DNA of 64,000 nt from a virus, in IMG/VR virus record IMGVR_UViG_3300044634_002329, positions 55,986-119,985 of that record, one strand, 5' to 3'. How positions within the stretch are numbered: position 1 is the stretch's first letter; each line of letters opens with the position of its first letter. A program made the translations under genes and the position numbers. Shown here piece after piece: positions 9,947-40,808 of the stretch. Under the pieces are notes generated by a model, which had not been told where the DNA came from, made no database searches, and saw only the letters and a program-made list of their open reading frames with translations.

Positions 9947-9957
9947 TAACTTATATT

Positions 9958-21000: not shown

Positions 21001-21781
21001 TACATTACAACAAGCAGCATATAGTAGATTATATGAAAACATGTTTGGAGTAACTCCAACTATACATATTTTCCCAATTGAAAGAGAATCTAATAAAGAT
21101 ACTGAACAAGTTTTAACAGCAGGTAAACCAAGCAACCCTACTTTGTTTAATAATATTCAATATGAAATAGATCCAGAAACCGGAAATTTTGTACTAGATG
21201 CTTTTGGTAATCCTAAATTTACTATATTAGATAAAGGAGTAAATTCAAATAAATTTATACCTTTGTATATAGAGACAGTTCAAGATAGAATTAACTCTGT
21301 AATACCATTAAAAGCAGTGGCAACGGCTACTGAAAATGTAGTTGAGACTCCTGAAACTAATGAAGAAGAAGAAACACCTACAAAAAAGAAGAAGTCTAAT
21401 TTTGTTAATGATAATCAAAATGATCCATATACTGTAGGAACTATGGTATATGATGCAGATGGTAATTCATATCAAATAACAAGAAGATTTAAAAATGGTA
21501 ATGTGACTATTATAGGTTCAGATAAAACAAAGATTAAAATGACTATGAAAGAACTTGAAGAAAACTATAAACTTGAAAATGAAGTTTATAATCCAACATC
21601 ACCTACAGGAGAATACAATCTTACTCCTGAAGAAGATGAAACTCTTAAAAAATCACAAAACACTGTTAATGAATTTATTGATAGTGACACATTAGAAAAT
21701 AAAGCATTTGAAGAAGCTTTAACAGCTAATGAATCTGACATTAAAAATAGTCTATTTAATAAAATTATAAATTGTCAATAA
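15086..21781 (+). CDS. Giant virion protein with C-terminal PD-(D/E)XK nuclease domain
   Basis: A 2231-aa protein at the head of the giant polymerase block. An amphipathic or hydrophobic segment lies at about residues 220-275 and another around 570-600 (FASGFFMGTLASP). Long Lys/Glu-rich helices and coiled coils fill about 680-1620. Near the C-terminus a RecB/Cas4-like PD-(D/E)XK core is readable: E1926-I-D1928, D1942-I-K1944 in VDIKTG, and a following helix FTLQQAAYSRLYE carrying the Q...Y signature. The catalytic D, D and K appear present, so the nuclease may be active. The stop overlaps the next ATG (TAATG). In crAss phages the proteins in this position are packaged with the RNA polymerase; that is family knowledge applied by synteny. 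Confidence 0.7.
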   Translation: MATTNEETFSSLDPLGPEYGNINQPTLDNQGLSAFEGERIRDKQINFPTPQRFTPIAPGLNNLESPNQNVRRNVVNSAPNKPGINKNSSHQDLVNGINAKLRAKIQTNQDKNSYAKIYSYDAGPDANAFYKRYQAYGQETFDKIGFSPLRDNEALFNSRTTMWDDHVRMMKHSFWPLFSQGFTAGPKSLMKMFSGDFTSSDLEESKAYEEAAAIGQSNKGGIGGFTNNLLMNFAYSAGIMTEAVVEEVAGILLAPETLGASLFLTTANNLRKVGKIAKGVDRAIDGMKAVNTTLKSVDNFSSAKKFWESTKALSSSSFNPLKNTLQGFKDAQGTLKIGSEINNFTNLGKAYKTAGGFYKDVRNINMALSEARLEAGTVENKIYDNLYNEYYKEHGTSPDDAQQYEMIKQAKKGAVNTLYWNTALIYGSNTITFPNIVGPKGGLNNFMKNTVKELQTVEGGKFGKLGSIVYDKAKKQFEFQANDFKTYVKNWAKQPVYKSLKSTLGYTKANFTEGVQESLQEIISGANERYYTDSFKSPVIQSHTYAKGISQYNSMTQGDYMMAEAKKQMSSQGLETFASGFFMGTLASPINKSFDFLSVGYNRMFKPEVFQQYKAEKEKIATDTVKKLNEIDMKDFFDTRMFNYGVQDAVSSIKKTGTTKEAHDADHDGFMSQMDMLMRTGTLDVFKDKLKEMQQMSPEEVEENIPTIPKEEAKKYQARIDDTLTKIDRIEKRRDYYNQKFPNPVDIENVDASNVMQYEDDVALHYAWNDAIKHAVYFNETFEDTMQRKKDIVSRYLSKTPLKGMSQIDSEVLFDGNKLNNEIMMLTDEVAALKDLDDPQSKKQLKEKSKKLEAYEILSDASNNFKNFFNRYDNTEKLKAKLQKEKGEKPVTDEELEKALDEQYGEFSEENIGLYYANYANGYKKYLKMISNDDDMLFDQDIQESFILLADHHKLDKESRKLMSYVNLLHDPNGFIQQVERTKEWMKDLYRRRESYYKEMVDRELDNVEDNTLMNALADVGIYMSAEDYANYSDNGIPPKEFVDNVNKMVYKRGTQKYNEIYNEYLEKKDSLKASKVKKKTGTSTLKDTFNKKLEEINKKEQEELNALAKSKTRADVKTFETNSINITDTEFIKSQLEPEQYVELKYPENPKLNKIFFLDKDGVLKYDDVNGVPVDELDADFTQSGAYEATVFKYTEAVDPELKKEIQDKYQKQRDEILKEYNKDITYEGEEGEFTPIPENVTGDQIKKEHANFYQKEILPLFNAYLEKTYPDINDRLNIFEEEENEILTEFIKTPDIQAIIKAYNVKNSPVEDKADYILEFKGVKTDTSKASIDDLKALIIKIENEIESLKNNTTTNFSKNIIELETELTNLRGVIKGRAQKKYTPEQKAAIENVKRLQALNKKSVEAGVVLEQDDTVTGLKKGAIAYRINGKFHRRVSNVVDKLKKEGYNYTSEKDVRDAYAETIEVEGLTNDSVDKFIDELIKRNIAGSDGIFFEKLRSRLKSMVVEPVDVQIKNLQKQIAELNTKIADAKLKDETVKEQQYITAKEKIAEEIIALEMSQPSNDQSDIEAKKAELKKQIEALPDDMIYGAHVTQDQVAQDIFNSQFEYSLGTGLQGTIGLTSKKGLLTLMNNLLDGNSPHRNQFGVFITAWPKSEFGETTINNKVDLDKIESDMLDNYPEMSEGKIPTKFNFGYFKNGKLFTNNDKTVTEEPVTPGQNKTNHDDIVKMLDSNLKVKGVINQVEGSTGVSMSLDYWDKNKKVIFYNHDRTVTPEDYGKEVELRLIPVYQTEDGKVFNNAIEVWQGDRFLGLVAETDYVTPKEEKNLVEDVLELISENTYADSRTAGNYIDKAVKDLFSKGIQPKFVEGAITREAYDSLFGPDGYLTELKNQADNGDIFIASDNLVVWDSDIILPNKAKDRIAGEIDLLIVDKDGTTRIVDIKTGEQRTWNIFNSTQTKENTPVFAKRESFTLQQAAYSRLYENMFGVTPTIHIFPIERESNKDTEQVLTAGKPSNPTLFNNIQYEIDPETGNFVLDAFGNPKFTILDKGVNSNKFIPLYIETVQDRINSVIPLKAVATATENVVETPETNEEEETPTKKKKSNFVNDNQNDPYTVGTMVYDADGNSYQITRRFKNGNVTIIGSDKTKIKMTMKELEENYKLENEVYNPTSPTGEYNLTPEEDETLKKSQNTVNEFIDSDTLENKAFEEALTANESDIKNSLFNKIINCQ

Positions 21782-24700
21782 TGATAACTTGTCCTATTAA
21801 TGATCCAGAAATTGTAAGTTTATTATATAAACTTATTGTAATTAAATTAAATAATTTTTCAAGTAATGAAACATTTGATCATGAAGCTTTTTTAAAAGAA
21901 TTATATGATGAAATAGCTGATAAAACTTCACCAGAAGTAGCAGCTAAATATTTACAGTCTGTACCAAGGTTACTTAGTTTAGCTGCTATTAAAAGGTTTG
22001 AAAATATTGATATTGATACAACTGCATTAAATAAATTAAGTAGAAAATTTAAATCAGAAACTGGTATTGCTGAGATCATTCAAACATATTCTACTGATTC
22101 TGATGAAGAGTTACGTAGAAAAATTAAGGAAAAAGAAGATGCAGAAAATAAAATACCTGTTGAATCAACTAGTGATCAACCTGTAATATTATTACCAACT
22201 AGATTTAAAGCAGCTTCTGCAGCTTCTGGAACTTTACAACAATTTGTAAAAGTTGACCCTAAGAAAAAAGGTCAGCATGATGAAGTAATTATTGAGACTA
22301 TTGATCCTGAATTAGAAACAACAATAAATGTTACTAATAAAATAAATGACTTACAAAATACTACACTACCAGGTGAAGAACTTAAATATCAAGGTAAAAC
22401 ATTAAGATTAAAAGTACAAGATGTTGTTGGTTTTAGAAAAGAATATTCTGATAAATTAAGAAAAAATGATGAAGAAAGTTTAAAAAGAAGTTCTGCTATT
22501 CTTGCACAAGGTAGTAAACTAGGAGATGTTATACCTATAAATGCACAAAGTTTATTAGTAATTACTGATGATAATGGTAATTTCTTATACTTTGATAAAG
22601 ACGGTAACATTACTGATGAAGCTAATGGTAATATTGTATATCAATTTTTAAGACCTGTAAGAAAAGACGGTAAAGAATATACTGTTACTAATGTATATAC
22701 AACTGAAAGTAGTGTTGCAACTCCAGAACAAATTGCTCAACAAACATATGATCAAAATTCAGATATTGATTATGATGCATATGTAAAAGCAATAAAACAA
22801 CAACAACAAGAAGAATTTAAAGCTCTTTATGGCATACAAGAACAAATTAAGTCAGGAGATAAAACAAGTATATTACTCCCTATTACTGGAGTATCATCTG
22901 GTGTACCAAGTAATTTATCAAGTACTATCATTTATTTAAATGAATTATCAAAATTTCCAGGACTTGATATAGCATCAATATTAACTAGTATTAATGTTAT
23001 AACATCTGATACAGCTAGTTTTAAAAAAGGTCAAACAACTGTACGTATTAATGGTGGTGAATTTAAGATTAATAATCCTAGAATGAATGAGGAATTAATG
23101 TCTGAAATTGCCGCTATGCTAATGGATCCAAACCCTCCTGCATCATTAAAACAAATATATCTTAATCAATTTATTGATACAACAAAAGATACAACACGTA
23201 GAATTCAATTTAATTCTATTGACAATACAATTGAATTATATAAAAAAACATCTACTAAAAATTCTTCAGGAACTTATACATTTGGTAAAGTAATTAACCG
23301 TACTATTGATTTAGAAAAACTTAAAAATAATGGATATACTGAACAAGAACGTCAAGATCTTGAAAAAGATATATTACAATATTTAAGAGAAGGTTTTAAA
23401 AATGGACCTACATTAATTAATATCAACAGTAGTTTAATTAAAAATCAAAAAGAATTTATTAGATATAATAGAGATACTAAAGAACCATACTCAGGTGACT
23501 ATTTAGAATTTATATCTTCTTTTCCTGCAGAAATTAATTTGATTAATGCAGATCCAGGTATTTATAATAGATCAATAGAGTTTGCATTTCCAGGAAGTTT
23601 TATTGATGACTTACAAAAAGCTGATAAAAATTTAAATAATACAGAAGGAGAAAACTTAAGCTTTGAAGAAATTCTTAAAAGAAAAGAAGAAGAGGACAAT
23701 AGAAATCCTGTTAAAGTAGAAGCACGTGATATTATTGCTAATTCAAAATCTGAAGAATTTTTAAATAAAGTTAAAAACTATCCAGGTAATACTAATATTA
23801 ATCCAACAGATAATTTTCTACTTGTTGCATACTTTAAAGCAGCTATTAAAGAAAAAAACTATACAAAAGAATTTGCTAATAGTATTAAGAATGAAATTCA
23901 AAGTCTTTTACCATTAAATCCTTTAAGTGTAGAACAAGTTAAAATGATTGAAGATGAGATTGATGCTATTAAAGAAGTACCAAGTCCTTCTCAAACTCAA
24001 GCAGAAATCAAAGATCAGGTAGAAGTACCGGGTGCTCCTGATCCGATAAATAATGCTACTACTAATGGGATGTTTACTGATAATGATATAGATGATGATA
24101 TCTTTAAAGGTTTATTCAGAAGAGGTTCTAAAGATGAAAAGATAGCTAGAGAAAAAGTTATTGCAGCTAGAACATGGTGGAATAGTCCTGAGTTAGCTCC
24201 TTTAAGAAAAGTTATTAGTCTTGAACATGTAGCTAACTTAGTTAACTCTGATGTATATGCTTCTTTTATTACTAATGCTAGTAAAATAGCAAACCCTGAT
24301 GGGACACTTGGTAAGATTACTGCTAATACAGCAAAAGGATCTGTATTTCAAAACTTAACTATTTACCATGAAGCATGGCACGGATTCTCTCAATTGTTTT
24401 TAAGTAAACAAGATAAAATTGATTTGTATGAAGAGTTAAGAAATTATACCACACCTAAAGGTGCAACTCCTTATGCTACTAAATCTTATTTGGAACTAGA
24501 GGAAATGTTAGCAGAAGACTTTAGAAACTATGTTAAAACCGGTAAAGCTAAAGCATCTTCTCCTAAAAGAAATACTTTGTTTAGAAGAATGGTGGAGTTC
24601 TTAAAACAATTATTTGGTAAAGGATTAAAAAAATTCAATAACAAAGATGTTCTTATTAATAGCCTTAATTCACCAATGGCTAAAGAATTATTTGACAAAC

Positions 24701-27700
24701 TTTATATTGGAGATATTAATAAATATACACCTTTAATTGATAACTCTATGTTCTACTCATTAGATAGAGGAGTACCTAGTGTCAATAATAAAAGAAATGT
24801 TGTATTAAGTAAACAAGATTCAACACTTGCTGTATCTTCTATAGATGGTATTTTTAGTCAAATTTTAAATACTATTAATGAAAAAGCTAGAGTTGCAGGT
24901 AAGTCAGGAGCTAAAGGAGCTAATATTGCTGTATTTTTAGAACCATCAAGAAGAGCTGCATTATATGTTCAAGCTAAAAAAGAATTAGAATCTAAATTAA
25001 AAATAGAAAAAGATAAATTAGCTAAAGTAGAAGGTATTGTAAACTTTAGTACATTAACAACACTACAAGAAATTAAAGATAATGCAGCTGGTGTATTTGT
25101 AAACTCAGAAGGTAAGAACAAATTTATATTTTTAAAATCTCAAATTGATGATTTTACAATATTAGAACCTTCATTAAAAGCTAATGGTGATAGAGTTAAA
25201 GGAGAAAAATACCACGGGATTAAAATTGTATCAGACTTTTACAAACATAAAACCATTTTAAATGGTAAAGTTCCTGCTGATATTATGGTTGTAACTTCAA
25301 TGGCACAAGCTGAAGAACAATTAAAAAATTATATTGATGGTAACTCAAAAGCTTATACTAAAGTAATTGATAATAAATTAGAAAATCCAGTATTATTAAC
25401 AGAAGATCAAGAATTTATTCAAGACAATATTAGAATTCTACAAACTATGCTTGACAATTACGGAGATGAAAACTCTGGATTGGTTAAGTATCATATGGAG
25501 AATAGTGACTTTGAAATATCTAAAACTAAATATGAGTTAGATGTTATTGATGAAAACAATGATGAAGCTATTAGTGAAAATGATTTAGAAAATTCAGGAA
25601 GAGATATAGAAACATTTAATGATGTAAAAAAACATAAACAGTCTTTACTTCAAACGATGAGTAAAGAAACTACTATGTTACTTAAAAGTCTTATTAAAAC
25701 AGATGGTAATAATGTTGTTAAAAACAGATTAGGATTTCCTGAAAGAGTTGATTTTATTAAAGTATTTAATATTGTAGCTAAAACTATTGGTGGAGTAAGA
25801 GATAGAGAACTGGCTTATAATTTATTAAAAGCTGAAGCTTCAAAGTTTCCTGAAATTCAACAGTTAATTGATTTTAAATATCCAGATCCTAATACTAAAA
25901 ATTCATATGAATTTGATATTAGTAGACAATTTTTACAAGATTTTGGAAAACCAAAAGTTACTTATAAAATTGTATTAGCTGTACCAGATGAAGAATCAGG
26001 TACAATTGATTTTAAATTAGCAGAAGCATCTTTAGCAATTAGTAATATTACAGGTAGATGGCAAACAGAATTTGTTAGTGCATCACCTAGTAGATATATT
26101 AAGAAAACTCCAGATAATGAATCTGAACTTAATTTACAAAATATACTTACTGACTTTAGTAAAAAAGATGAATTAGTTATAAGTAAAGCATTTGACTTTG
26201 CTAAAGCTATAGGTATTAATCTAACTGTAAATGATAATATCAAATCTGATTTTGATTCTAAATTAGAATACTATGGTATTCCGTTTATGTTTAATATAGT
26301 TAAAGACTTTGCTCAAATAGAACAAGATTTAAACAATCCGGCTACTGCTGCATCTGTGTCATCTGCACAAAAAACATTTCTTAATAAATTTAAAGCTAAC
26401 CCTATTGAAGTTTTAAGAACAGCAGTTCCTATAAATATTTTAACTACCTTTCCTAAAGGTATTAATGAGAATACTCAAATCACTAGATTAGCTGAATTAC
26501 AAGCTAAATACGGATATGACTCAGCAACAACAGGTGTAATTACTGCAGATGGTAATACAGCTTATGAAGATGTTAATTACAGTTTTATGACAGGATTTGT
26601 AGATGCTGTTAACTCTGTATCTAACATAAGAGATTTATGGACTAAGAATGAATATAGCCACATGGCTTATTTAAATCCTAATACTAATACATTTACTAAG
26701 AACTTAAGAATATTAAATGAAATATTTGATATGCATACTGGTGCAAAAAAACCAGGTAAGTCTCTTCAGTTAATGAATGTAAATGGTACTAGTCAAATTA
26801 CAGAAGATGAAAATGGTAACTCAAATACTGAAGGTACTGTTACAGCTGACTTAGATCCAATAGGAAAAGGATTACAAGAATTACATTCTATGTTAGGAGG
26901 AGGTGTCTCTGAGTTTAATAGAATGTCTGAAAAGAAAAATGCATATGGTCTTAAAGTAGTAGGAGGTATTGTTGGTAAAACAGATCCTATTAGTTATGCT
27001 ACCAAAGGAGCAGATACAGACTTATATGTAGATGTAATCCAATTTGCTAATAATGGTAATGGAGAAATCTATGCTATTAATAATCATTTCCTTGGTTATA
27101 TCCAATCTGAATTTGACAGAATAGTTAAATTCAAAGGTAACAGACGTGAAGAGTATTTAAACTTTACAGGATTTAATAACAAAGTAAATGATGTAAACGG
27201 TGTTGAAAAATATGCAGGTGAAGTATTTAATGACTTTGATGATATCCTATCAAAAGATACACAAAATCAATTATATGCTCTTGCTGATCAATATGCAAAT
27301 AGTAATGAAGTTAATATACCTTTAGTACAATATTTAAAAACTAATTCTAAGTTATTAAAAGATATTCAAACAGATATTACTAATTACTTTGATACTGTTA
27401 CAGAAAAATATAAAACACTTTACTTTGATAAATTACCTTATATATCTAAGTCAATACTAGTAAAAGCAGGAGTACCTAAAGAAAAACTACTAACTAGAAA
27501 ACAAGTTGAAGAAGCTCAAGAAGATCCTAAAAATATTCAGACAGTTCTTAAAGCATTTATGTATAATGACTGGATTCATAGATTTGAGGTCTCCTCTTTA
27601 ATGTTTGGAGATAGAGCACAATGGAATCATGGTAAAGAAGAACAACCTAAACGTATTCCAGGAGCACAATCTGATGGTATAGGATTTCTATATGATCAAT

Positions 27701-30700
27701 CTTCAAGAGATTTTATTAATGATGTATTTAATAAAACTACTGAAACATATGGTGCCAAATTAACTAGAGAGTCTGAAGATAATACTAAGTATGATTCATT
27801 TAAATATTCAGATGTACTTAATACTGCAGTTATTAAAGATGCTCAACGTGAATCTATTTATTTAGCAGAATATCAAGCTGCATGGAAAAAAAATTATATA
27901 GAAGTAAACAATTATTCTGAAGAAGAAGCAGATAGATTAGTAGAATTAGATTCAAAACCTTTTAGAAAAGATAAAATGGATGAATCTGATGGTATTGCTT
28001 ATATGACTCTTGATGCATATAGAACATTACATAAAACAGGTAGAGGTTGGTCAGTAGCTCAAGAAGCATTGTATCAAAAAGTTGTAGCTGGTGAAACAAT
28101 TTCAACACAAGATGCTAAAGAATTTTTTCCAATTTACAAATTACATTATTATGGTTCATTAAAAAATGATTTGTTACCAGCTATGGCTATGCATAAGTTT
28201 TCTGTAGCTCCTTTAATTCCAGGTGTGTATCCTGAAACTAGTGAATTAGGAAAACTACATAAAAAAATGTTAAAAGATAATGTTCAATATGTAACATTTA
28301 AATCTGGTTCAAAAGCAGTTACATTAACTAATGGAGGGAATGTAGATAACTTATTTGCTAACAGTAATGAAAACAGTATTAATGAAGATTTTACTTTTAC
28401 TGTTAACCCAATATTCATGGCTAACTTAAAAGAAGTAACAGTTATCAATGAATACTACAAAAAAACATTACCTATTGCTACTCAAACAAGAGTAATCATA
28501 TTAGATAACTTATATAATGATGGTAAATTAACTAATTCAGATAATGCACCGTTAGTTAATGATTATAAAAATGTAGTTAGGGATTATTCAATTGTTTTAA
28601 AAGATGAATTATTAAATAAAATTGGATACTCTCTTAATGAGGATGGAAATTATGAAGGTGACATTACTACTTTTGTACAGGTATTAAGAGAAGAGTTAGG
28701 TAATAGAGATATCCCAGAACAGTTATTAAAATTACTTAACACTACTAAAGAAGGTAAATTATCTATAGATCTATCTTTACATCCTCAAGCAGAAACTATT
28801 GAAAAGTTATTATTAAGTATTATCCAAACTACATTAATTAAACAACAGACTAATGGGGAACCATTAACTCAAATGCCGTCTACATTTACAAATGGTATCT
28901 GGGATGATCAATATAAAACATTAACAAATCCTGCTGATATTGAAAGATTATTAGGAACTAATACTCTTCCTTTTTATAACATTAATAAAACTACAGGTAA
29001 AACCAACTTAATGAAAGTTGCTATTGCTTTACAAGGGGAGTATAAAAATTTATTGAAAGCAAAAGACTTAGATGGTAATGTAATTGGTACTATTGACAGA
29101 TTAAATGAATTAATTAAAGATGATAAATGGTTAGAACAAAACCGTGATGCTATTTCATTGTTTGGACCACGTATTCCTAATGATGCTACAAATACAATTG
29201 AAGGAGCTGAAGTATGGCATTTCTTTAATGAAAGTTTTGGTAATGCTATTATATTGCCTACTGAAATTGTAGCTAAAGCTGGGTCAGATTATGATGGAGA
29301 TAAGTTATTTATGTCAATGCCAAACGTTGATAAAGATGGTAACTATATTAATAAAGGAATTGATAATTATGATGCTTTATTAAAAGAAACTATTGCATTA
29401 GAAAAAGATGGTAAACTAGGTAAAGACAGATTAAAATCAGGTCAATTAATTGAACTTCAAAAAAAATATTTACAAAACTTATATCTTAAAAAATCAATTG
29501 ATCTTTTAACTCTTCCTGATAACTTTGGATATTTAACTAAACCAAATCAAACATACTTAGTTGAAAAGTATGCAGAAGATTTACAAAAATTAGGCACAGG
29601 ATATAATAGATATGAAAGTGCTACTCATGGTAGTCCAAAAAAATCTGTGGGTCCTAAAGATAAACAAAAAGATGTAGTTAGTCCTACAAGACAAAATGAA
29701 ATTAGCCATCAGTTATATTTACATGATGCTAACTTATCTTTAGAGCCTTCATTAGGTGTACAAGCCAACTTTACTAAAAGTCATGTATTATATAAAACTG
29801 TTGGTGTAAATATGCCGGCTACTTATACTACTTCATATACTAACTTTTCAGTTAATAGAGTAATTAAAAGTTTAATTGAGTTGCCTATGGTGATGAGACT
29901 AAAACATAATACTGCAATTAATGAAGCTGGTAAAGAAGTAATATCATTATCTGGAGAAAAAACTCAATTAGGTACTAGAATTACTGATATTAATTCACAT
30001 GCATTAAATGGTATTTTAGATAGAGCTAAGAACTCTTTCCCATTTGATTTAAAACTTGTACCAGAAGCTATTAATACGTTAAACTACATGCTTCAAGCAG
30101 GTGTTAGTGAAGAAGAAATTTTTTACTTTTTAACTCAACCATTAATAGTTGAATACATTAAAGATCAAAAGTTAAGAAAAAGTCCTTACTATAGTATTGT
30201 ATATGGTGAATCTAAAGGTAGTAAAACTACAGCATCTGCAAATGCTATAATTCAAAATATGATTAATGTAAAAGGAGTAGATTTTACTTCATATTTAGCT
30301 GATATTAACTTACTAAAATTAAAAGCTACATTAGAATCTTATGCTGCTTCTGCTAAAAAAAGTAAAGAAGCTTATAATGTAAAATTAAAAGATGAGTCAA
30401 TTTTATACACTCTTACACCAGAAGAAATAATTAATAAAATTAATAACGGTGATATTGATCCAACAACAATAAAAAAAATATTTAATAGTAATGCAAAAGA
30501 TGCATTTGAAGAAGTAACTGAATCAAAAGAATTGTTTACAGATAAAAATTATGCATTTACTACTCAAGCATTCTCAAATGCTTTTTTACCAGAAGGGATA
30601 ATTAATATTGACTTTTTAAAAAAACATATTAAAGATTCTAGTAGTCCTGCTGCCTTAACATTGTTTTTTAATTATTTAGAATTAGAACAACAATATGAGG

Positions 30701-33700
30701 GTATGAGTGAATTAGAAAAAGTATTTAGTCCAGATAAAATTAAATTAACTACAGCTCAACAAGTGATTAAAAGAGAAGAAGCATATAAAAATTTATATGA
30801 AAATAGTAAAGTTGATAAAGCTTCTCTTGAGAGATTAACAAAACAATCTGTTTTATCTTCTTTTAATCAAGATAAACTAATATTAGATTTAGTTACTCCA
30901 TTGTTCCCATTAAGATTAAGTAATGAAATTTCTAGTTACATTACTAAATTATTTAATGATCCAACTGAAAGTCGAAAAATTAGAAATAAGTTTGGGACAG
31001 GTATTGATGGTCAAGAATTCTTTACTAAAAAATATCAAAATGCAATTGTAGCATACATTTATCAAAACTACATGTCTAGATTTGTTAATGCTGATGGTAC
31101 TTTGACTAATATTCCGGAATCTTATAATGGTAAACCAGTACTAGTTAATAATGATATCAATACTAATGTTATTATAGATAAAGATAGTATCATAATTAAT
31201 AGTGATAGAGTTAGAACTGAGTACCAAAGAAAAGTATATTTAAGTGCAAATAAAAATGTAGGATACACAGGTGATAAATTTGCAAAAGATCCTTTTAATA
31301 CTTTAAATAGTTACTATAGATATACAATTGAAAAAGAATTATTAAGAACAAGTATTCCTATTGAAAGTTTAGAACAAAATAAAGATTTTCTTAATTTATT
31401 AAATACTTATAATACTGCAGACGAAGCATATGAATCATATATTTCTGAAAAAGCTTTAGCTAATACTTATAATAGAAGCTACATTGTTGGTACAGCTAAA
31501 TATAGTTATACTGAAAAAGTATTAAATATTATTAAAGAGTTTGAGAATACAAACTTAAAAGATAAATATCCTATACTAGCTCAACTAGCTCCTGTTAAAA
31601 CTAAAAAAGCTGTAAAATTAATTCAGTTAAATGATAAACAAATAGCTAAAGGAGTATTAGGTGAAATATACATTAACAACTTAATTAATTTAGCTAACCC
31701 TATTATTAAAAAAGTTGATGATCCTATTGATAATCAAAGAATTAGTGACGTATTTAAAGATTTTTCTTTAATGATGTTTTATCAACATGGAGTTGGTAAT
31801 AGTAAATTAGGTTTTGTAAATGCTATAGACCCTGAAGTTTATACAGAAAGTATGACTAAGTTTTCTCAACAGTTTTTAAATAACTATTTATCAGATGATT
31901 CATTGACTGATGTTTATAATATGCTAATGGCTCCTGGTAATCTATTTGGTAACTTTGAAATTAAAGATGTAGAAAATGAAAAACCATACTCTAAAGCAGA
32001 TCAGTTAACACCTTTTGAATTACCAGGATCTACTTCTCCTGTGGCTAATATACCACAAAATAAAATATCTGGAGTAGCTTCTTTTGGATCTACAGTTACT
32101 GCAAATGATGAAGTAATTAAAGTACTTGGAGCAAATGCACATTCTATAGATATGATAGAATCTGGTTTAAGAACTAGGACTACAAGAAGTGAATCTGAAA
32201 TGGCAAAATATGCTGTTAAGGTGGGAGATATCATTAAGCATTTTGGTAAGTCTGCTGATGGTTCAACTAAAACTATTTTAGCTAAAGTAACAGCAATACA
32301 TCCTAAAGGAACACCTGGATTTAAAGGTACTTGGAATAAAGAAGGTTGGAGATCTGAAGATGTAAATGTTATAGACAGATTTAAAGATGGTGCTGCAGCT
32401 ATTGAGTTTGAAATAATTAATAATAATCAAACACCAGGATCTACTTCTGTTAATAAAAAAGTTATTAAAAATGAAAAAGGTTTAATTATTATTAATAATG
32501 CAATTCCTACAGAAAAAACTATTGATATTGTAAAAAATAATAAAGATTTTATTCAAGAAACATCTTTTAAACAAACAAATGGTTCAGTATCTTGGGGTTA
32601 TGGTATGCAATGGATTAGAAGTTCTGCATTAACAGATAAACAAAAACAAGGTGTTCAAATAGGAAAACAAATTGGTGGACAAGAAGTAACAGAAGAAATG
32701 GTAAATCAACTTCTTGCTGGAACTGAAGCAAAGAAAATTAAAGGAATGCCTTTATATGTATATACTAATATTGATATAAATGGAAATAGATTACCTAATA
32801 TACCTAATGAGATAATAGAAATACTGTTAGAACAAGGTATTGATGTATCTCAATATGATGCAAGTTATAATTCTGTATATGATAAAAATGACAAAGGAAG
32901 TCTTATTGTTCATCAGGATAATACAGAATTTAACACATCTCCTATTATTACTGTGTCTTTAGGTAGACCAATGAAATTTATTACATATCAATTAAAAGAT
33001 TCTAGTAATTATTCATTTGGTACAAATGCTAAAAATAGATATGAATTAACATTAAATACAATATCTAATAAACTTGTAGCTGGTAAATTAGCTCCTGAGT
33101 TAAAAAGACAAAAGAATTTTAAAGGTGATGAAGTTATAGGTTATGGTGAACTTACTCCAGGTAATTTAGCTAAATATGCTAAAATGGTTGGAGAAGAATC
33201 TGCAGCATTAGATGCATTAGCTAATTCAATAGAAAAAATTGAAGAACATACTTTAACTAATGGAGCTGTTTTAGTATTCTCTAAAGAAAATAGAAATGTA
33301 TTTCATGAAATTATATTTGATGAAGAAACAGATGCATTACCTATGCCTAAAGGTTTTCCTGAATTAACTATTAATAAAGCTTATAAAGGTTTAGGTAAAC
33401 CAGATCAAATGGTTAAAACTAAAGACTATAGAGTTGTATTAACACTTAGAAAAGTTAACGGCACTAAAGAATTAGATGTAGTTGATACAAATAAACTTAC
33501 AGCATCTCAACCTACACAAGTTCCTACACCTATTCAACCTATAAGTGATATTGATAATAGTAATAAACCTGTATTAAATAGTCTTCCTAATAAGTCATCT
33601 ATCCCAACTATGACTTATGCGGGTATTGGATCTAGACAAACCCCACAAGAAGTTCTTAATAAAATGACTGAAGTAGCTAAGTATTTAGATGGCTTAGGTT

Positions 33701-36700
33701 ATACATTACAAACTGGTTTTACATTTAAAGATAAAAATACAGGTTTAGATGAAGAAGGTGCAGATAAAGCATTTTCAGATGGAGCTCAAAATAAAATATT
33801 GTTTGGACCTTCAGGTATTAGAAAAACAATAAATGGAGAAACATCAGTAGATACATATAATCCAAATGTAACTACTAAATCTACTGATGTGGTTAAAGAA
33901 GTACATCCAGCACCTGAAAAATTAAGCCCAGGAGCTTTAAAGTTAATGGCAAGAAATACTAATCAAATCTTTGGTAAAAATCTTGATAGTACAGTAGATT
34001 TTGTAATATTCTATGCTCCTGAAACAAACAATCCTTTAAGACCTAAAGGTGGTACAGGACAAGCTGTAGAAATGGCTAGAAGAAAAGGTATCCCAACTAT
34101 TAATTTAGCTAATAGTAATTGGAGAGAAGAGTTAAAAACTGCACTTGCTAATAGATCTACTCAATCACCTACTAAAGTTGAAGTAAAAGCTTTTAGAACA
34201 TCAGGTACTTTTTCATCTACAGTAGACTATGCACAAAGAGGTTCCGGAACATATTATGCATTAGATAAACCATTTCAAGAACTAGGAAGAACAGATAAAG
34301 TTGAAGAAGTAAATGTATCTTATAACCCATCTAAAACTTTAGATGCAACAACTGAAGAAGGTCAATCTAAATTTATGGAGATTAAAAGAAAAGCTGTTGA
34401 AGGTAAAACTTTTGATGAAATAAAAGATTTAAATGATGCAGTTTCTCAAGAAATGATGAATAATGGATATGAGTCATTAATTGGTTGGATTGATGAAGAT
34501 GTACCTAATGTAGGTAGAGAACTTGTTATATATCCTACTCAATCATCTACTGATACAAACTATCAATTACCACAAAATAGAGAATTAGAAGAATACGTAG
34601 CATCTGAAAAAACTATTAGAGATTTAGCTGCTAGAATGTCTGATAGAATAGGTATACCTTTTATATTTGAATCTGATAGAACTAAAGAATATAAAGGTAA
34701 ATTAGAAAGTGATAGACAAGTATTAGATGCAGATCCTGAAGATGGAGTTACTTATGGAAATGTAAAAAATACTGCTTTTATTAATTTAGCTTATGCTACA
34801 TTAGATACTCCTATACATGAAATATTAGGCCACCCTATTATCAGAGCTATTAAAAATAATACAAAAGGGACTTTTTATGAACCTAAATATGACAATTCTT
34901 TAAATCAATGGGTTATTGAAGAACATAAAATTGATGATTATGATGTTCATTTTTTTAATACAAAAAAAGAAGCTGATGCTTTTTATAAAAGTAAACAAAG
35001 TCAACTTTATCAAAACTTACTTAAAGAACTTGAAACAGGTAAAGGTAAAGAAGTATTAGATAGAATTAAAAGAGATTATAATAAAAAATTTGAAAGAGGT
35101 AAATCATTTACATTTGAAGGTAAAGATTACATTGCAGATAATGCAAGTAAAACAGGTTATAGAGATAAATATGGAAATGATGTAGAGTCTAATGAGTTAG
35201 AAATTAGTTTATTTGCTTATGAATTAAAACATAAAGATAAAATTTATTATACTTTAGAAGAGCAACAAGAAGAAGCTCTTGTAGAACTTTTAGGTATGAT
35301 GACAGCTGGAAAACTTGATGCAGTTAAAGATGGTAATTTAATTTCTCTTTTAAAAAGACTTCTTAAAGAAATAAAAACTTTTGTAAAAGATCTTTTAAAA
35401 CAAAAAGAAATAGAAATAAATAAGTTACCTGATAATATGACATTAGGGGATATATCTGATATATTAGCTTATAGTAATTCTAAACTTATACTCCCTGGTA
35501 ATGAAGTAGAATATACTACTCCTGATAATCAAAAATTTAAAACTTATCAAGAAGCAAGTAATCATATTAGTCAATTAGTTAAAAATATTAAAGATGTTGA
35601 TTTAGATAATATTAAGATTGAAAATAAAGGTATTCCTAATCATTTTCAAAAAGATACGTATCAAGGAGACAGAGACTATACTGATTGGTATTCATTTAAT
35701 GATGGAAAATATTATGTAGAACGAGATGGACAAAATTATGAAGATGGTTTTAGTAGAACAAAAGAAATAACTAAACAAGAATTTGAACAAGCTTATATAG
35801 ATTCTCAAAACTATGGAGGAATGATTGGTAAAGGTACTATTGATTCTGATATTACTTCTTTTATAGCAAAAAATAAAGAATATGAACAATCTAAAGAAAT
35901 TATAGATGAATGGAAAAAAATAAATAATATTCAATATAAACCAGAAGAAATATATAGTAGAGGTCAAGAATTTACTTCAGTTGTTGGAGCTTATTCTGAT
36001 TTTGATGTAAATCTTATGATGCAAAATTTATTATCTCATATTGAAGATAATGAAAAAGCTGGAGGTAAATTTGCAATATCAGCATTTACTAAACCTATTG
36101 ATAAAAAAATATCACATCTAGAAGGGGGAGGAGGTAAAATTAAATTTAAAATTTATCCACAATCTCAAGATATTTTATGGGCTGCTAATATTGATGTATA
36201 TTCTGGTAGTGTTTGGGATGCTGCAGACAAAGTAAATAAAGATAAAAAATCTGAATTACTTGGAGTAAGTTATACTAAATATCCTTCATTAGACAATGTA
36301 AATGCTGTACAACCTAATTTAGCTTCTATTGTAGATGATTTAGCTCATCATCATAATGAATTAGGTATTTCTTTAACTGGTAATAACTTTAGATTAGAAT
36401 ATGATGATAATATTCCTAACACAACTAAAAAAATTATTGATAGTATTAATTCTATATTAGATCAAAAATATGGTAAAATAATTAAACCTGAAATTAAAAA
36501 ACAAGAACAACAAATAATAAAATATGGGTTATTTAGTAAAGGTGCTAATGATATTTTAGATGAGTTTAATACAAAAGAAGAAGCTCAAACTGCTGTAGAT
36601 TTTAATAATAAATTATTAATTGATGGAGGAGAGTCAGCAGACTATTCTGTAGTTCCAATTAAAAATATAGGTATTCAACCAACTCAAACTAAAAATAATA

Positions 36701-37551
36701 TAAAAGAAGATATTAAAGATGTTAGAGAAAAAATAAGAAAACAATATGATGAAACTATATTTCATAAATATAGTAAAGATGAATTAGAAATTGTTCCTTT
36801 TGAAGATCAAAAAGGTTATTTTATAATTCAAACTAAACAAAAAAATGCTAATGGTTATCCATTAGATGATACTATTAATATTTTTAAATCAGAAGATTTA
36901 GCTAAAGCACATATTGAAAAAAATTATAATGAATTAAAAACAATAAAACCTAAACCAGATTATACTACACAAGCTTTAATTAATACTAAAATAGCTGCAC
37001 TTAAAGAAATAGCTAAAAAATATCCAAGAACTTTAATTAGAAATGAAGTTAAACCTATAAATGAATTAAAATCATTTAATCAATTTGAAATAGATGAATT
37101 ACCATTTCAAAAATTAAAGTCTAAATCTTTTATTAATAATAATAATATATCACCTATAGAAAATGATCAAGAAATGTTTAACCAAATGGTTAAACAAAAC
37201 AATGGTCAATACCCTAAAAGATTTGAAAATCAAGGTAGAGTTTGGTTATTAAATGCAAATAACTTATATGATTCTATTGATGATGTATCTAAAAGTATCA
37301 TTATTAAAAACATGAATATGGTTACTGGACAAATTGAACCAGAAATAAAAACAGAAACACCAGTTAATCAAGAAGAATTATTTAATTTTATACAATCAAT
37401 TAATAATTCAATTTTAAATGAAGGGTTAGATGTAATATTAGCTAATAATGGAATAAATGTACAAGATATTCTTGATGAAGCTAGTAAAGTTACAACTCAA
37501 GAAGAATTAACTGATTTAGAAAATAATTTAAAGAAATACATATGTCGTTAG
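21781..37551 (+). CDS. Giant multidomain virion RNA polymerase polyprotein
   Basis: About 5256 aa from the ATG overlapping the upstream TAA (TAATG); a TTG at 21772 would add three residues. Domains seen in order: zincin motif HEAWH at 863-867 with a Glu-rich helix at about 905-912; crAss-like multisubunit-type RNA polymerase region at about 1950-2760 with catalytic DYDGD at 2503-2507; ASCH-like domain at about 3429-3545 between two PGSTS linkers; AlkB-like 2-oxoglutarate/Fe(II) dioxygenase (H3711-x-D3713, H3842, RVVLTLR 3884-3890); SLOG/YpsA-like domain from about 3942 (TYAGIGSRQTP); an ADP-ribosyltransferase-like segment at about 4132-4254; a second metallopeptidase-like HEILGH at 4346-4351; and about 700 C-terminal residues unassigned. 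The polymerase would transcribe early genes after ejection. Processing into smaller chains is plausible but not shown. Confidence 0.85.
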   Translation: MITCPINDPEIVSLLYKLIVIKLNNFSSNETFDHEAFLKELYDEIADKTSPEVAAKYLQSVPRLLSLAAIKRFENIDIDTTALNKLSRKFKSETGIAEIIQTYSTDSDEELRRKIKEKEDAENKIPVESTSDQPVILLPTRFKAASAASGTLQQFVKVDPKKKGQHDEVIIETIDPELETTINVTNKINDLQNTTLPGEELKYQGKTLRLKVQDVVGFRKEYSDKLRKNDEESLKRSSAILAQGSKLGDVIPINAQSLLVITDDNGNFLYFDKDGNITDEANGNIVYQFLRPVRKDGKEYTVTNVYTTESSVATPEQIAQQTYDQNSDIDYDAYVKAIKQQQQEEFKALYGIQEQIKSGDKTSILLPITGVSSGVPSNLSSTIIYLNELSKFPGLDIASILTSINVITSDTASFKKGQTTVRINGGEFKINNPRMNEELMSEIAAMLMDPNPPASLKQIYLNQFIDTTKDTTRRIQFNSIDNTIELYKKTSTKNSSGTYTFGKVINRTIDLEKLKNNGYTEQERQDLEKDILQYLREGFKNGPTLININSSLIKNQKEFIRYNRDTKEPYSGDYLEFISSFPAEINLINADPGIYNRSIEFAFPGSFIDDLQKADKNLNNTEGENLSFEEILKRKEEEDNRNPVKVEARDIIANSKSEEFLNKVKNYPGNTNINPTDNFLLVAYFKAAIKEKNYTKEFANSIKNEIQSLLPLNPLSVEQVKMIEDEIDAIKEVPSPSQTQAEIKDQVEVPGAPDPINNATTNGMFTDNDIDDDIFKGLFRRGSKDEKIAREKVIAARTWWNSPELAPLRKVISLEHVANLVNSDVYASFITNASKIANPDGTLGKITANTAKGSVFQNLTIYHEAWHGFSQLFLSKQDKIDLYEELRNYTTPKGATPYATKSYLELEEMLAEDFRNYVKTGKAKASSPKRNTLFRRMVEFLKQLFGKGLKKFNNKDVLINSLNSPMAKELFDKLYIGDINKYTPLIDNSMFYSLDRGVPSVNNKRNVVLSKQDSTLAVSSIDGIFSQILNTINEKARVAGKSGAKGANIAVFLEPSRRAALYVQAKKELESKLKIEKDKLAKVEGIVNFSTLTTLQEIKDNAAGVFVNSEGKNKFIFLKSQIDDFTILEPSLKANGDRVKGEKYHGIKIVSDFYKHKTILNGKVPADIMVVTSMAQAEEQLKNYIDGNSKAYTKVIDNKLENPVLLTEDQEFIQDNIRILQTMLDNYGDENSGLVKYHMENSDFEISKTKYELDVIDENNDEAISENDLENSGRDIETFNDVKKHKQSLLQTMSKETTMLLKSLIKTDGNNVVKNRLGFPERVDFIKVFNIVAKTIGGVRDRELAYNLLKAEASKFPEIQQLIDFKYPDPNTKNSYEFDISRQFLQDFGKPKVTYKIVLAVPDEESGTIDFKLAEASLAISNITGRWQTEFVSASPSRYIKKTPDNESELNLQNILTDFSKKDELVISKAFDFAKAIGINLTVNDNIKSDFDSKLEYYGIPFMFNIVKDFAQIEQDLNNPATAASVSSAQKTFLNKFKANPIEVLRTAVPINILTTFPKGINENTQITRLAELQAKYGYDSATTGVITADGNTAYEDVNYSFMTGFVDAVNSVSNIRDLWTKNEYSHMAYLNPNTNTFTKNLRILNEIFDMHTGAKKPGKSLQLMNVNGTSQITEDENGNSNTEGTVTADLDPIGKGLQELHSMLGGGVSEFNRMSEKKNAYGLKVVGGIVGKTDPISYATKGADTDLYVDVIQFANNGNGEIYAINNHFLGYIQSEFDRIVKFKGNRREEYLNFTGFNNKVNDVNGVEKYAGEVFNDFDDILSKDTQNQLYALADQYANSNEVNIPLVQYLKTNSKLLKDIQTDITNYFDTVTEKYKTLYFDKLPYISKSILVKAGVPKEKLLTRKQVEEAQEDPKNIQTVLKAFMYNDWIHRFEVSSLMFGDRAQWNHGKEEQPKRIPGAQSDGIGFLYDQSSRDFINDVFNKTTETYGAKLTRESEDNTKYDSFKYSDVLNTAVIKDAQRESIYLAEYQAAWKKNYIEVNNYSEEEADRLVELDSKPFRKDKMDESDGIAYMTLDAYRTLHKTGRGWSVAQEALYQKVVAGETISTQDAKEFFPIYKLHYYGSLKNDLLPAMAMHKFSVAPLIPGVYPETSELGKLHKKMLKDNVQYVTFKSGSKAVTLTNGGNVDNLFANSNENSINEDFTFTVNPIFMANLKEVTVINEYYKKTLPIATQTRVIILDNLYNDGKLTNSDNAPLVNDYKNVVRDYSIVLKDELLNKIGYSLNEDGNYEGDITTFVQVLREELGNRDIPEQLLKLLNTTKEGKLSIDLSLHPQAETIEKLLLSIIQTTLIKQQTNGEPLTQMPSTFTNGIWDDQYKTLTNPADIERLLGTNTLPFYNINKTTGKTNLMKVAIALQGEYKNLLKAKDLDGNVIGTIDRLNELIKDDKWLEQNRDAISLFGPRIPNDATNTIEGAEVWHFFNESFGNAIILPTEIVAKAGSDYDGDKLFMSMPNVDKDGNYINKGIDNYDALLKETIALEKDGKLGKDRLKSGQLIELQKKYLQNLYLKKSIDLLTLPDNFGYLTKPNQTYLVEKYAEDLQKLGTGYNRYESATHGSPKKSVGPKDKQKDVVSPTRQNEISHQLYLHDANLSLEPSLGVQANFTKSHVLYKTVGVNMPATYTTSYTNFSVNRVIKSLIELPMVMRLKHNTAINEAGKEVISLSGEKTQLGTRITDINSHALNGILDRAKNSFPFDLKLVPEAINTLNYMLQAGVSEEEIFYFLTQPLIVEYIKDQKLRKSPYYSIVYGESKGSKTTASANAIIQNMINVKGVDFTSYLADINLLKLKATLESYAASAKKSKEAYNVKLKDESILYTLTPEEIINKINNGDIDPTTIKKIFNSNAKDAFEEVTESKELFTDKNYAFTTQAFSNAFLPEGIINIDFLKKHIKDSSSPAALTLFFNYLELEQQYEGMSELEKVFSPDKIKLTTAQQVIKREEAYKNLYENSKVDKASLERLTKQSVLSSFNQDKLILDLVTPLFPLRLSNEISSYITKLFNDPTESRKIRNKFGTGIDGQEFFTKKYQNAIVAYIYQNYMSRFVNADGTLTNIPESYNGKPVLVNNDINTNVIIDKDSIIINSDRVRTEYQRKVYLSANKNVGYTGDKFAKDPFNTLNSYYRYTIEKELLRTSIPIESLEQNKDFLNLLNTYNTADEAYESYISEKALANTYNRSYIVGTAKYSYTEKVLNIIKEFENTNLKDKYPILAQLAPVKTKKAVKLIQLNDKQIAKGVLGEIYINNLINLANPIIKKVDDPIDNQRISDVFKDFSLMMFYQHGVGNSKLGFVNAIDPEVYTESMTKFSQQFLNNYLSDDSLTDVYNMLMAPGNLFGNFEIKDVENEKPYSKADQLTPFELPGSTSPVANIPQNKISGVASFGSTVTANDEVIKVLGANAHSIDMIESGLRTRTTRSESEMAKYAVKVGDIIKHFGKSADGSTKTILAKVTAIHPKGTPGFKGTWNKEGWRSEDVNVIDRFKDGAAAIEFEIINNNQTPGSTSVNKKVIKNEKGLIIINNAIPTEKTIDIVKNNKDFIQETSFKQTNGSVSWGYGMQWIRSSALTDKQKQGVQIGKQIGGQEVTEEMVNQLLAGTEAKKIKGMPLYVYTNIDINGNRLPNIPNEIIEILLEQGIDVSQYDASYNSVYDKNDKGSLIVHQDNTEFNTSPIITVSLGRPMKFITYQLKDSSNYSFGTNAKNRYELTLNTISNKLVAGKLAPELKRQKNFKGDEVIGYGELTPGNLAKYAKMVGEESAALDALANSIEKIEEHTLTNGAVLVFSKENRNVFHEIIFDEETDALPMPKGFPELTINKAYKGLGKPDQMVKTKDYRVVLTLRKVNGTKELDVVDTNKLTASQPTQVPTPIQPISDIDNSNKPVLNSLPNKSSIPTMTYAGIGSRQTPQEVLNKMTEVAKYLDGLGYTLQTGFTFKDKNTGLDEEGADKAFSDGAQNKILFGPSGIRKTINGETSVDTYNPNVTTKSTDVVKEVHPAPEKLSPGALKLMARNTNQIFGKNLDSTVDFVIFYAPETNNPLRPKGGTGQAVEMARRKGIPTINLANSNWREELKTALANRSTQSPTKVEVKAFRTSGTFSSTVDYAQRGSGTYYALDKPFQELGRTDKVEEVNVSYNPSKTLDATTEEGQSKFMEIKRKAVEGKTFDEIKDLNDAVSQEMMNNGYESLIGWIDEDVPNVGRELVIYPTQSSTDTNYQLPQNRELEEYVASEKTIRDLAARMSDRIGIPFIFESDRTKEYKGKLESDRQVLDADPEDGVTYGNVKNTAFINLAYATLDTPIHEILGHPIIRAIKNNTKGTFYEPKYDNSLNQWVIEEHKIDDYDVHFFNTKKEADAFYKSKQSQLYQNLLKELETGKGKEVLDRIKRDYNKKFERGKSFTFEGKDYIADNASKTGYRDKYGNDVESNELEISLFAYELKHKDKIYYTLEEQQEEALVELLGMMTAGKLDAVKDGNLISLLKRLLKEIKTFVKDLLKQKEIEINKLPDNMTLGDISDILAYSNSKLILPGNEVEYTTPDNQKFKTYQEASNHISQLVKNIKDVDLDNIKIENKGIPNHFQKDTYQGDRDYTDWYSFNDGKYYVERDGQNYEDGFSRTKEITKQEFEQAYIDSQNYGGMIGKGTIDSDITSFIAKNKEYEQSKEIIDEWKKINNIQYKPEEIYSRGQEFTSVVGAYSDFDVNLMMQNLLSHIEDNEKAGGKFAISAFTKPIDKKISHLEGGGGKIKFKIYPQSQDILWAANIDVYSGSVWDAADKVNKDKKSELLGVSYTKYPSLDNVNAVQPNLASIVDDLAHHHNELGISLTGNNFRLEYDDNIPNTTKKIIDSINSILDQKYGKIIKPEIKKQEQQIIKYGLFSKGANDILDEFNTKEEAQTAVDFNNKLLIDGGESADYSVVPIKNIGIQPTQTKNNIKEDIKDVREKIRKQYDETIFHKYSKDELEIVPFEDQKGYFIIQTKQKNANGYPLDDTINIFKSEDLAKAHIEKNYNELKTIKPKPDYTTQALINTKIAALKEIAKKYPRTLIRNEVKPINELKSFNQFEIDELPFQKLKSKSFINNNNISPIENDQEMFNQMVKQNNGQYPKRFENQGRVWLLNANNLYDSIDDVSKSIIIKNMNMVTGQIEPEIKTETPVNQEELFNFIQSINNSILNEGLDVILANNGINVQDILDEASKVTTQEELTDLENNLKKYICR
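32022..32448 (+). repeat. Exact 16-bp direct repeat encoding PGSTS linkers around the ASCH-like domain
   Basis: ACCAGGATCTACTTCT occurs at 32022-32037 and again at 32433-32448 in the same frame, encoding PGSTS at residues 3415-3419 and 3552-3556 of the giant protein. The interval is the ASCH-like domain. An in-frame repeat at both domain edges suggests the module was inserted or shuffled as a unit. Confidence 0.75.
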
Positions 37552-40500: not shown

Positions 40501-40808
40501 CTTATAACTTCTTATTATATGAAGCAATAAGAATGAGATCAGAAACATCTTCTTATATCTGGCTTCCTGATGCTTACCGTATTGTAAAATCACCTTCAGC
40601 TATTACCGGTACATTAGATAGAACTATAAAATTTATGGGTCAAATAATGCCTTGGAATATCACTGAAGAATATGAAAGAAAAACAGGAATATGGAATGCC
40701 GGTGATAATAAAGCATGGGCATACTTTTTAAGATTAATGGGTTATTCTGGATACAATTTAACTCCAGAAGAAGCAATCAAAAGTTTCAAATCTACATTCG
40801 TTAAATAA
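37542..40808 (+). CDS. Large crAss-like protein, companion of the virion RNA polymerase
   Basis: A 1088-aa protein whose ATG overlaps the upstream gene by 10 bases. The N-terminus (VSCPIKSSKEY) matches the opening of the giant polymerase protein (ITCPINDPEI). Residues about 10-290 are Glu/Lys-rich and helical. The C-terminal third carries a pattern I recognise from crAss-like giant proteins: FDKGTAQRFSLGRVALMYRK then VVPGYTRRF. A single hydrophobic helix (MGIIASTALIIMILEAAG, about residues 955-973) is followed by DDDED. No catalytic motif was identified. Position and conserved segments suggest it is ejected with or helps deliver the polymerase; the hydrophobic helix would suit membrane contact. 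Function is inferred. Confidence 0.65.
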   Translation: MSLVSCPIKSSKEYQDILAQANNNEEEALRLWNENEKLRDNPDLNETTEETTVEEEEDSPFKELIDKVILFLKKQLNDLKKKKLVDQTAKEKSLAELIANIEAAEGVQSINIFIDDAIKLSRQAEARLKTILANKENLTPHQMIEQLTSVNDFIKGYAIIDEIDKVDIEEFMNDETLITGIELSKMNPKSKIKEIKLIKDEINKQYIEKGIPLLAEFLSDFSPETLKEQGSKLIETAEKKIQEIEASSKTPEQKAKEIAPLQDRIDNILRSGGDKDSLIKSLKEATKDQGVLDFLLAPLISSPDSVLALFAKSIKRALQMAALKDIEFEKKITPEFQKYAKARGSQQNVKEFNKPLFEEVDYVYKDKNGKEVTIKRAAFVQKFDMNKYNKAQSELYKSLGEKPTDAKSLGAWKKRRNNWYRLNTQSVSKEKIAEIDQAKKKELTDKIITAEEYQTWLDEDRVKEITEPSDQYLNDKWLALYNIDGTPKNKLGDHHKFLLDQYLSDQKKLPVSQRPNFFVPSIEKTDADRLTSNSTKEFLKDKITDQFKLKSYDAASGITSLSNEDARFIPVYYNQVMDINDVSLDLTRSIMMFHSMTNKYEALNNYHGEISLMKAVIGNREVAKTNSKGKAIIDAFAEKNGLTDFIKKNGESYSEKHLNAFIDMVVYGEMQKAEDIFGISATKLTNSIMGFSAITTISMDVLKGTANSIQANIQVLIEANSGEFFGKKNLAKGKAKFWSKAAPAMVSDWGKPTPTSLYGQLHQLYDPMQGRYKDQYGKNVTATTANKLIRTDTLFFNQHFGELEIATTTLYALMDNTMVKTNDGREITLLAAYEEFGVNDIFDKTDFTLNKQLDLQDRIHALNKRMHGVYNDFDKGTAQRFSLGRVALMYRKHVVPGYTRRFKKLGADQELGAYTEGYYRVFYDTVLKDLTKFKFNIVKNWSTYDSFEQANIKRVIAEMGIIASTALIIMILEAAGDDDEDLKTNFAYNFLLYEAIRMRSETSSYIWLPDAYRIVKSPSAITGTLDRTIKFMGQIMPWNITEEYERKTGIWNAGDNKAWAYFLRLMGYSGYNLTPEEAIKSFKSTFVK

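What the first reader, a model, noticed from the sequence alone, without database searches (positions are those of the whole stretch)
21781..37551. Virion RNA polymerase fused to a string of putative anti-host enzymatic domains in one ~5256-aa protein
Seen: one uninterrupted frame contains HEAWH, DYDGD, ASCH-like, AlkB-like, SLOG-like, ADP-ribosyltransferase-like and HEILGH segments. Known: crAss-like phages package giant RNA polymerases and eject them with DNA; polyvalent phage and plasmid proteins carry mixed domains of this kind to protect incoming DNA. Inference: here the polymerase and a polyvalent defence-counter set are one ejected polypeptide, so anti-defence enzymes would arrive before any phage transcription.
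Basis: partly seen in the sequence, partly recalled or inferred. Interest (0 to 1): 0.85.

Follow-up and report, generated by a model that had tools for sequence, protein, structure and literature searches.

The report
Phage polymerase with swappable enzyme cargo
A crAss-like phage encodes its injected RNA polymerase and a swappable set of enzymes (AlkB, SLOG and others) as one 5,256-residue protein that has no cysteine except one at each end, a pattern found across the whole phage order that suggests the injected proteins are linked end to end like a train.

Summary
The ORF is real: ATG 21781 to 37551, 5,256 aa, in a Crassvirales-like phage contig. Residues ~2050-2830 are a crAss-type virion RNA polymerase (DYDGD aligns with the catalytic GSDFDID). 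AlkB and SLOG domains are solid, both HExxH zincin segments are conserved, ASCH is weak, and the ADP-ribosyltransferase is not supported in this phage (ART-PolyVal is present in relatives).

In relatives, residues 1-3384 and the last ~140 are conserved, while the stretch between is an exchangeable cargo slot. Phages 97.8-99.9% identical over the polymerase carry different cargo (NADAR+ART versus AlkB), and cassettes are 70-82% identical between phages whose cores are 23-45% identical.

Unexpected: the protein has exactly two cysteines, residues 4 and 5255. The upstream virion protein has one (penultimate residue), the downstream protein one (residue 6). The junction pattern holds in 34 of 37 lineages (the exceptions are interrupted genes), including phi14:2 and crAss001, whose proteins are virion components by mass spectrometry. 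Cargo regions of 17 phages contain 0 cysteines in 13,758 aa (155 expected). This supports cargo travelling with the ejected polymerase and suggests head-to-tail disulfide linkage.

Anti-defence function is inferred, not shown. Precedent: N4 vRNAPs are polyvalent and cysteine-free; slot and junction cysteines appear new.

The parts
21781..37551 (+). Giant virion RNA polymerase ORF, 5,256 aa
21781..31932 (+). Conserved core, aa 1-3384 (homologous along its length in about 17 IMG/VR relatives, mostly 40-49% identity, 33-37% in the most distant near relatives)
21790..21792 (+). N-terminal Cys4 (MITC), one of only two cysteines in the protein
24367..24381 (+). HEAWH zincin motif, aa 863-867; region aa 802-947 homologous to HEAFH of crAss phages cr118_1 and cr4_1
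27928..30267 (+). crAss-type RNA polymerase homology, aa 2050-2829
29287..29301 (+). Catalytic DYDGD, aa 2503-2507
31933..37125 (+). Cargo slot (variable region), aa 3385-5115, no cysteine
32014..32415 (+). ASCH-like cassette, aa 3412-3545; 72-82% identical in L025, L026 and L099
   Evidence: ASCH assignment weak
32674..33450 (+). AlkB-type 2OG-Fe(II) dioxygenase, aa 3632-3890, catalytic H3711/D3713/H3842/R3884/R3890
33505..33516 (+). SQPT inter-module linker, aa 3909-3912
33610..34161 (+). SLOG (DprA/YpsA/MCP-like) domain, aa 3944-4127
34168..34536 (+).
34816..34833 (+). HEILGH second zincin motif, aa 4346-4351; aa 4253-5112 is 50% identical to a cargo segment fused to a gp50-like protein in L104
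37126..37548 (+). Conserved C-terminal module, aa 5116-5256 (beta 'YDL' domain plus helical tail, pLDDT about 90), ending in -ICR
37543..37545 (+). C-terminal Cys5255
15086..21781 (+). gp47-like virion protein, 2,231 aa; its only Cys is residue 2230 (nt 21773-21775)
37542..40808 (+). gp50-like RNAP-associated protein, 1,088 aa; its only Cys is residue 6 (nt 37557-37559)

Best explanation
The ORF is the virion RNA polymerase of a Crassvirales-like phage. Between its polymerase core and a conserved C-terminal module lies an exchangeable cargo slot, here holding an ASCH-like domain, an AlkB dioxygenase, a SLOG domain and a second zincin. Most likely the whole chain is packaged, threaded through the tail ahead of or with the DNA, and refolds in the host. 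There the polymerase transcribes early genes, and the cargo enzymes act on host nucleic acids, nucleotide signals or proteins before phage gene expression. Shown: the single frame, the homologies, the mosaic exchange, and cysteine depletion shared with proteins proven to be in virions of relatives. Inferred: packaging of this protein, no cleavage, and a counter-defence role (AlkB repairing or demethylating incoming DNA or RNA; SLOG binding or cleaving ADP-ribose-type alarm signals). The single cysteines at the ends of neighbouring chain members suggest that the ejected proteins are joined head to tail by disulfides that the host cytoplasm would reduce.
For: RNAP homology and catalytic motif. 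Crassvirales-type terminase and same gene-block order. AlkB and SLOG. Slot: strains 99.9% identical over 12.8 kb diverge abruptly at the slot, NADAR+ART versus AlkB (L016/L017); L010/L025 (97.8%) and L026/L090 (96.5%) do the same. Cassettes 70-82% identical where cores are 23-45%. T-Q-P-T/S linkers 14-fold enriched in cargo. Cargo 0 Cys in 13,758 aa versus 155 expected; standalone phage SLOGs have 0-3 each. Virion MS for homologous blocks: crAss001 gp47/gp49/gp50 (PMC10172136) and phi14:2 g065-g067. N4 vRNAPs are Cys-free, explained by tail and periplasm transit (PMC3715699, PMC3915230).
Against: No proteomics for this phage. Two HExxH segments leave room for self-cleavage. AlkB and SLOG could serve DNA metabolism rather than counter-defence; no PADLOC match in this window's cargo. 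Structure models of the cargo are mediocre (mean pLDDT 57.6 and 49.5).
Confidence: 0.72

Rival explanations
1. Polyprotein: the chain is cut (by its own zincins or a host protease) in the virion or after entry, so polymerase and cargo enzymes act as separate proteins.
For: Two zincin-like HExxH segments in the chain. In L104 the same cargo is encoded on the next ORF instead, so covalent fusion to the RNAP is not obligatory.
Against: crAss001 and phi14:2 block proteins are reported as the encoded units, with no cleavage mentioned in the passages read. No conserved cleavage motif was looked for.
Confidence: 0.3
2. The cargo enzymes are packaged but serve the phage's own DNA/RNA repair or nucleotide metabolism, not anti-defence.
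For: AlkB and DprA-like proteins have housekeeping repair roles; many phages carry standalone DprA-like genes.
Against: Rapid strain-level replacement by other enzymes such as NADAR and ART is typical of conflict genes, not housekeeping.
Confidence: 0.25
3. Terminal cysteines bind a metal or another partner rather than forming a junction disulfide.
For: No redox data exist.
Against: Usually exactly one Cys per end, so two per junction, with no further Cys nearby. The pair moves with the gene boundary (L104) and is missing at the end that is fused (jaberico, crAss002).
Confidence: 0.3
4. Assembly or annotation artefact (chimeric fusion).
For: Single metagenomic contig.
Against: An independent contig with 100% identity (L001) and many complete homologous fusions; identical cargo variants recur in contigs of different metagenomes (L010=L013, L017=L024).
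Confidence: 0.01

Closest known systems
Virion RNAP block of Crassvirales (phi14:2 g065-g067; crAss001 gp47, gp49, gp50)
   Same: RNAP homology, DxDxD loop, gene order, N-terminal zincin in some members, cysteine pattern
   Different: The reference proteins examined lack the AlkB/SLOG slot; cr118_1 carries a helicase-like C-terminal extension (read from its sequence)
N4-like (Schitoviridae) vRNAP polyvalent proteins (Iyer et al. 2017, PMC5512222)
   Same: Ejected giant RNAP fused to metallopeptidase and sometimes ART, lysozyme or PBECR; cysteine-free (PMC3715699)
   Different: T7-like polymerase, not the DPBB type; stereotyped architecture; no AlkB/SLOG/NADAR slot reported in the text read; no terminal Cys pair reported
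Polyvalent proteins of phages and conjugative elements (PMC5512222)
   Same: Several unrelated conflict-type domains in one chain beside late genes
   Different: SLOG, AlkB and NADAR do not occur in that paper's text
P23-45 tape-measure-fused vRNAP (PMC10770324)
   Same: About 5,000-aa virion protein containing a cell-type RNAP
   Different: Fused to a tape measure protein, not to enzyme cargo (abstract only)

Membership tests
Crassvirales virion RNAP | DxDxD catalytic loop within homologous RNAP sequence | tested here: met
Crassvirales virion RNAP | Transcription block after tail and ejection genes, followed by a gp50-like gene and an opposite-strand replication block; crass terminase | tested here: met
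Crassvirales virion RNAP | Two double-psi beta-barrels in one chain | not tested
Crassvirales virion RNAP | Packaged in the virion | not testable with these tools
   MS exists only for phi14:2 and crAss001
Polyvalent proteins (Iyer 2017) | Multiple distinct conflict-type domains in one chain, near late genes | tested here: met
Polyvalent proteins (Iyer 2017) | ART-PolyVal domain in this protein | tested here: not met
   met in L016, weak in L010 and L020. Not required for membership
N4-like vRNAP | T7-type single-subunit RNAP domain | tested here: not met
   The polymerase is homologous to the DPBB-type crAss RNAP instead
N4-like vRNAP | No cysteine | tested here: inconclusive
   None inside, one at each end
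AlkB 2OG-Fe(II) oxygenase | Profile over cut-off, HxD...H...RxxxxxR, fold | tested here: met
SLOG superfamily | Profile and Rossmannoid fold match | tested here: met
ASCH | Pfam ASCH over cut-off | tested here: inconclusive
Zincin metallopeptidase (both sites) | HExxH plus a family profile or fold match | tested here: inconclusive
   Motifs conserved; no profile or fold match

The most novel reading that the evidence does not exclude
Crassviruses load the host with a covalent protein train. The gp47-like, RNAP and gp50-like chains, purged of internal cysteines, are coupled head to tail by one disulfide per junction in the virion, and an exchangeable cargo wagon beside the polymerase delivers counter-defence enzymes before any phage gene is expressed.
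Probability: 0.4. Interest if true: 0.95.

Novelty: new variant of a known kind. Interest (0 to 1): 0.86.

Why it matters
It identifies a place where crassviruses swap injected enzymes, so new counter-defence proteins can be mined from a defined slot. Cysteine depletion becomes a sequence test for which domains travel through the tail. The junction cysteines make an open question, how several giant proteins are ejected in order through a narrow tail, testable with one non-reducing gel of phi14:2 or crAss001 virions.

Tried and rejected
PHROGs, Pfam and NCBIfam on the N-terminal 3,400 aa: no match at a curated cut-off. tblastn of the ASCH/AlkB part and of the ART/zincin part against named phages: no match. 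PF04266 and PF18760 in the own genome: none. ART by profile-profile: rejected. PDB sequence searches with single slices: none. Structure of aa 4250-5256: low confidence except the C-terminal module, and no Foldseek match. PADLOC: nothing in the window's cargo. Gene-overlap explanation of the terminal Cys: rejected, since the Cys codon overlaps the next ATG in only 9 of 61 cases and crAss001 gp47 lies on the other strand from its partners. Assembly chimera: rejected. p-crAssphage could not be checked (accessions not held).

Full report
1. Observation. The frame 21781-37551 is open and encodes 5,256 aa. The record is a 119,985-base virus contig and the window is its last 64 kb. TerL and portal match phage families. 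TerL aligns at about 25% over most of its length to terminases of many phages, among them crAss-like cr130_1, cr55_1 and cr1_1, and gene order follows the Crassvirales pattern. So this is a deep, Crassvirales-like lineage.

2. Domains. Residues 2050-2830 are homologous to crAss virion RNAPs. DYDGD 2503-2507 aligns with GSDFDID in A1, and R445-I-P447, G482 and D484 (slice numbering) are invariant. AlkB: Pfam PF13532 5.6e-10; a profile of the segment finds AlkB structures; Foldseek gives E. coli AlkB at 4.9e-5, with catalytic residues H3711, D3713, H3842, R3884 and R3890. SLOG: phrog_768 1e-45; Foldseek matches include the Thoeris effector EcThsA, DprA and the Moco carrier protein. Zincin 1 (HEAWH) is homologous to HEAFH of cr118_1, so it is an old feature of crAss RNAP blocks and not a special weapon here. 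Zincin 2 (HEILGH) is invariant in L104 and L105 but has no profile or fold support. ASCH is weakly supported through L094. The ADP-ribosyltransferase is not supported in this window.

3. The cargo slot. A pattern scan of IMG/VR gave 143 encoded relatives, 80 kept, of which 17 contigs besides a 100%-identical one have RNAPs 51-59% identical to the window's. Aligning whole proteins shows homology from aa 1 to ~3384 and again over the last ~130-140 aa, while the middle differs. Among relatives the middle spans 484-1,736 aa and carries AlkB in many, SLOG, NADAR with ART-PolyVal (L016), ASCH-like and uncharacterised modules, in changing order. A 60-aa 'YDL' domain often flanks the cargo on both sides; in L094 the cargo lies between YDL and the helical tail. 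L016 and L017 are 99.9% identical over 12,798 bases through the core, and similarity then stops just after the first YDL copy; L010/L025 and L026/L090 break at the same place, and L016/L018 a little further into the cargo. Identical variants occur in contigs of different metagenomes (L010=L013, L017=L024). Cassettes are more alike than cores: AlkB part 78% versus 41% (L021), ASCH-like 82% versus 33% (L099), SLOG 71% versus 26% (L094), 72% versus 23% (L096), 70% versus 37% (L098). Modules are separated by T-Q-P-T/S linkers: 32 in 12.5 kaa of cargo versus 8 in 43.3 kaa of core, shuffled mean 3.4. Their DNA is close to ACTCAACCW, a possible site of microhomology, which is only a suggestion. In L104 the RNAP ORF ends early and the window's zincin-2 cargo is fused to the gp50-like protein instead. 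So the slot lies between polymerase and gp50 whichever gene carries it.

4. Cysteines. The window's RNAP protein has two cysteines, 4 and 5255; the upstream 2,231-aa protein one, at 2230; the downstream 1,088-aa protein one, at 6. That is four in 8,575 aa, all at the two junctions. For 64 distinct RNAP ORFs with a separate next gene, 61 have Cys in the last 8 residues and 61 next proteins have Cys within 7 residues of Met; control ORFs give 12% and 16%. Grouped at 50% identity, 34 of 37 lineages obey; the three exceptions are interrupted ORFs in which a later ORF of the block ends in Cys. Where RNAP and gp50 are fused (jaberico, crAss002) the chain lacks the C-terminal Cys. In L104 the pair moved with the gene boundary. 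Internal Cys: 0.00024 per residue in RNAP ORFs and 0.00015 in gp50-like proteins, versus 0.0112 in minus-strand ORFs of the same contigs. Isolates: phi14:2 g067 (only Cys 1797 of 1797), g066 RNAP (3 and 2179 of 2180), g065 (only Cys 3), all annotated from virion MS/MS; crAss001 gp47 (only 2339 of 2341), gp50 RNAP (5, 1334, 2404 of 2412), gp49 (only 5), all detected in virions (PMC10172136). Overlap of the Cys codon with the next ATG explains at most 9 of 61 cases, and crAss001 gp47 is on the other strand from gp49/gp50.

5. Meaning. Cysteine absence in N4-like vRNAPs has been explained by passage through tail and periplasm (PMC3715699, PMC3915230). Here the whole cargo obeys the same rule: 0 of 13,758 aa in 17 phages (155 expected), and 0 of 1,736 in the window (about 20 expected), although standalone phage SLOGs carry 0-3 each. 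Cargo modules are partly related to each other, so these counts are not independent, but the window alone is already far from chance. This is the best available evidence that the cargo travels with the polymerase. One cysteine at each facing end, moved or lost with the gene boundary, fits an inter-chain disulfide; that is inference. The Cys is often a few residues from the terminus, which fits a disulfide better than peptide ligation.

6. Function. AlkB could reverse alkylation or methylation on incoming DNA or RNA. SLOG may bind or degrade ADP-ribose-type signals, as proposed for viral SLOG domains (PMC9503650); NADAR and ART in relatives fit an NAD/ADP-ribose theme. None of this was tested.

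7. Novelty. Polyvalent vRNAPs are known in N4-like phages (PMC5512222), so the fusion is a new variant of a known kind. I found no description of the exchangeable slot in crassvirus RNAPs or of the junction cysteines in the papers searched. The library lacks most subscription papers, including the phi14:2 RNAP structure paper.

Noticed in passing
window 15086-40808; L115, L123 and about 60 further loci: Single cysteines at the facing ends of neighbouring transcription-block proteins and almost none inside, across Crassvirales.
   Followed up: yes
L091 2-21776: A phage contig (141 kb; an identical stretch in a 226 kb contig) in which ORFs of 2932, 1450, 2343 and 480 aa carry facing terminal or near-terminal cysteines; cargo (AlkB, SLOG, ART-PolyVal) is on separate ORFs and no RNAP was recognised in the part examined.
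   Followed up: partly
L016 1519-1796; L010 1444-1712: A second small hypervariable stretch in the gp47-like protein of otherwise near-identical strains (about aa 1410-1500 in window P0002 numbering).
   Followed up: no
L002 21407-21686: RNAP gene of cr108_1 interrupted exactly in the catalytic loop after GSD, probably by an intron; its downstream part ends NLCK.
   Followed up: partly
window 5769-7940: 723-aa protein before the block with four cysteines in a CxxC...CxxC pattern (324, 327, 343, 346), zinc-finger-like.
   Followed up: no
window 8000-15099: Three further proteins of 648, 741 and 950 aa with no cysteine at all, probably also virion or ejected proteins.
   Followed up: no
L084 416-18649: A 6,078-aa RNAP ORF with a NADAR domain about 700 aa downstream of the polymerase.
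   Followed up: partly
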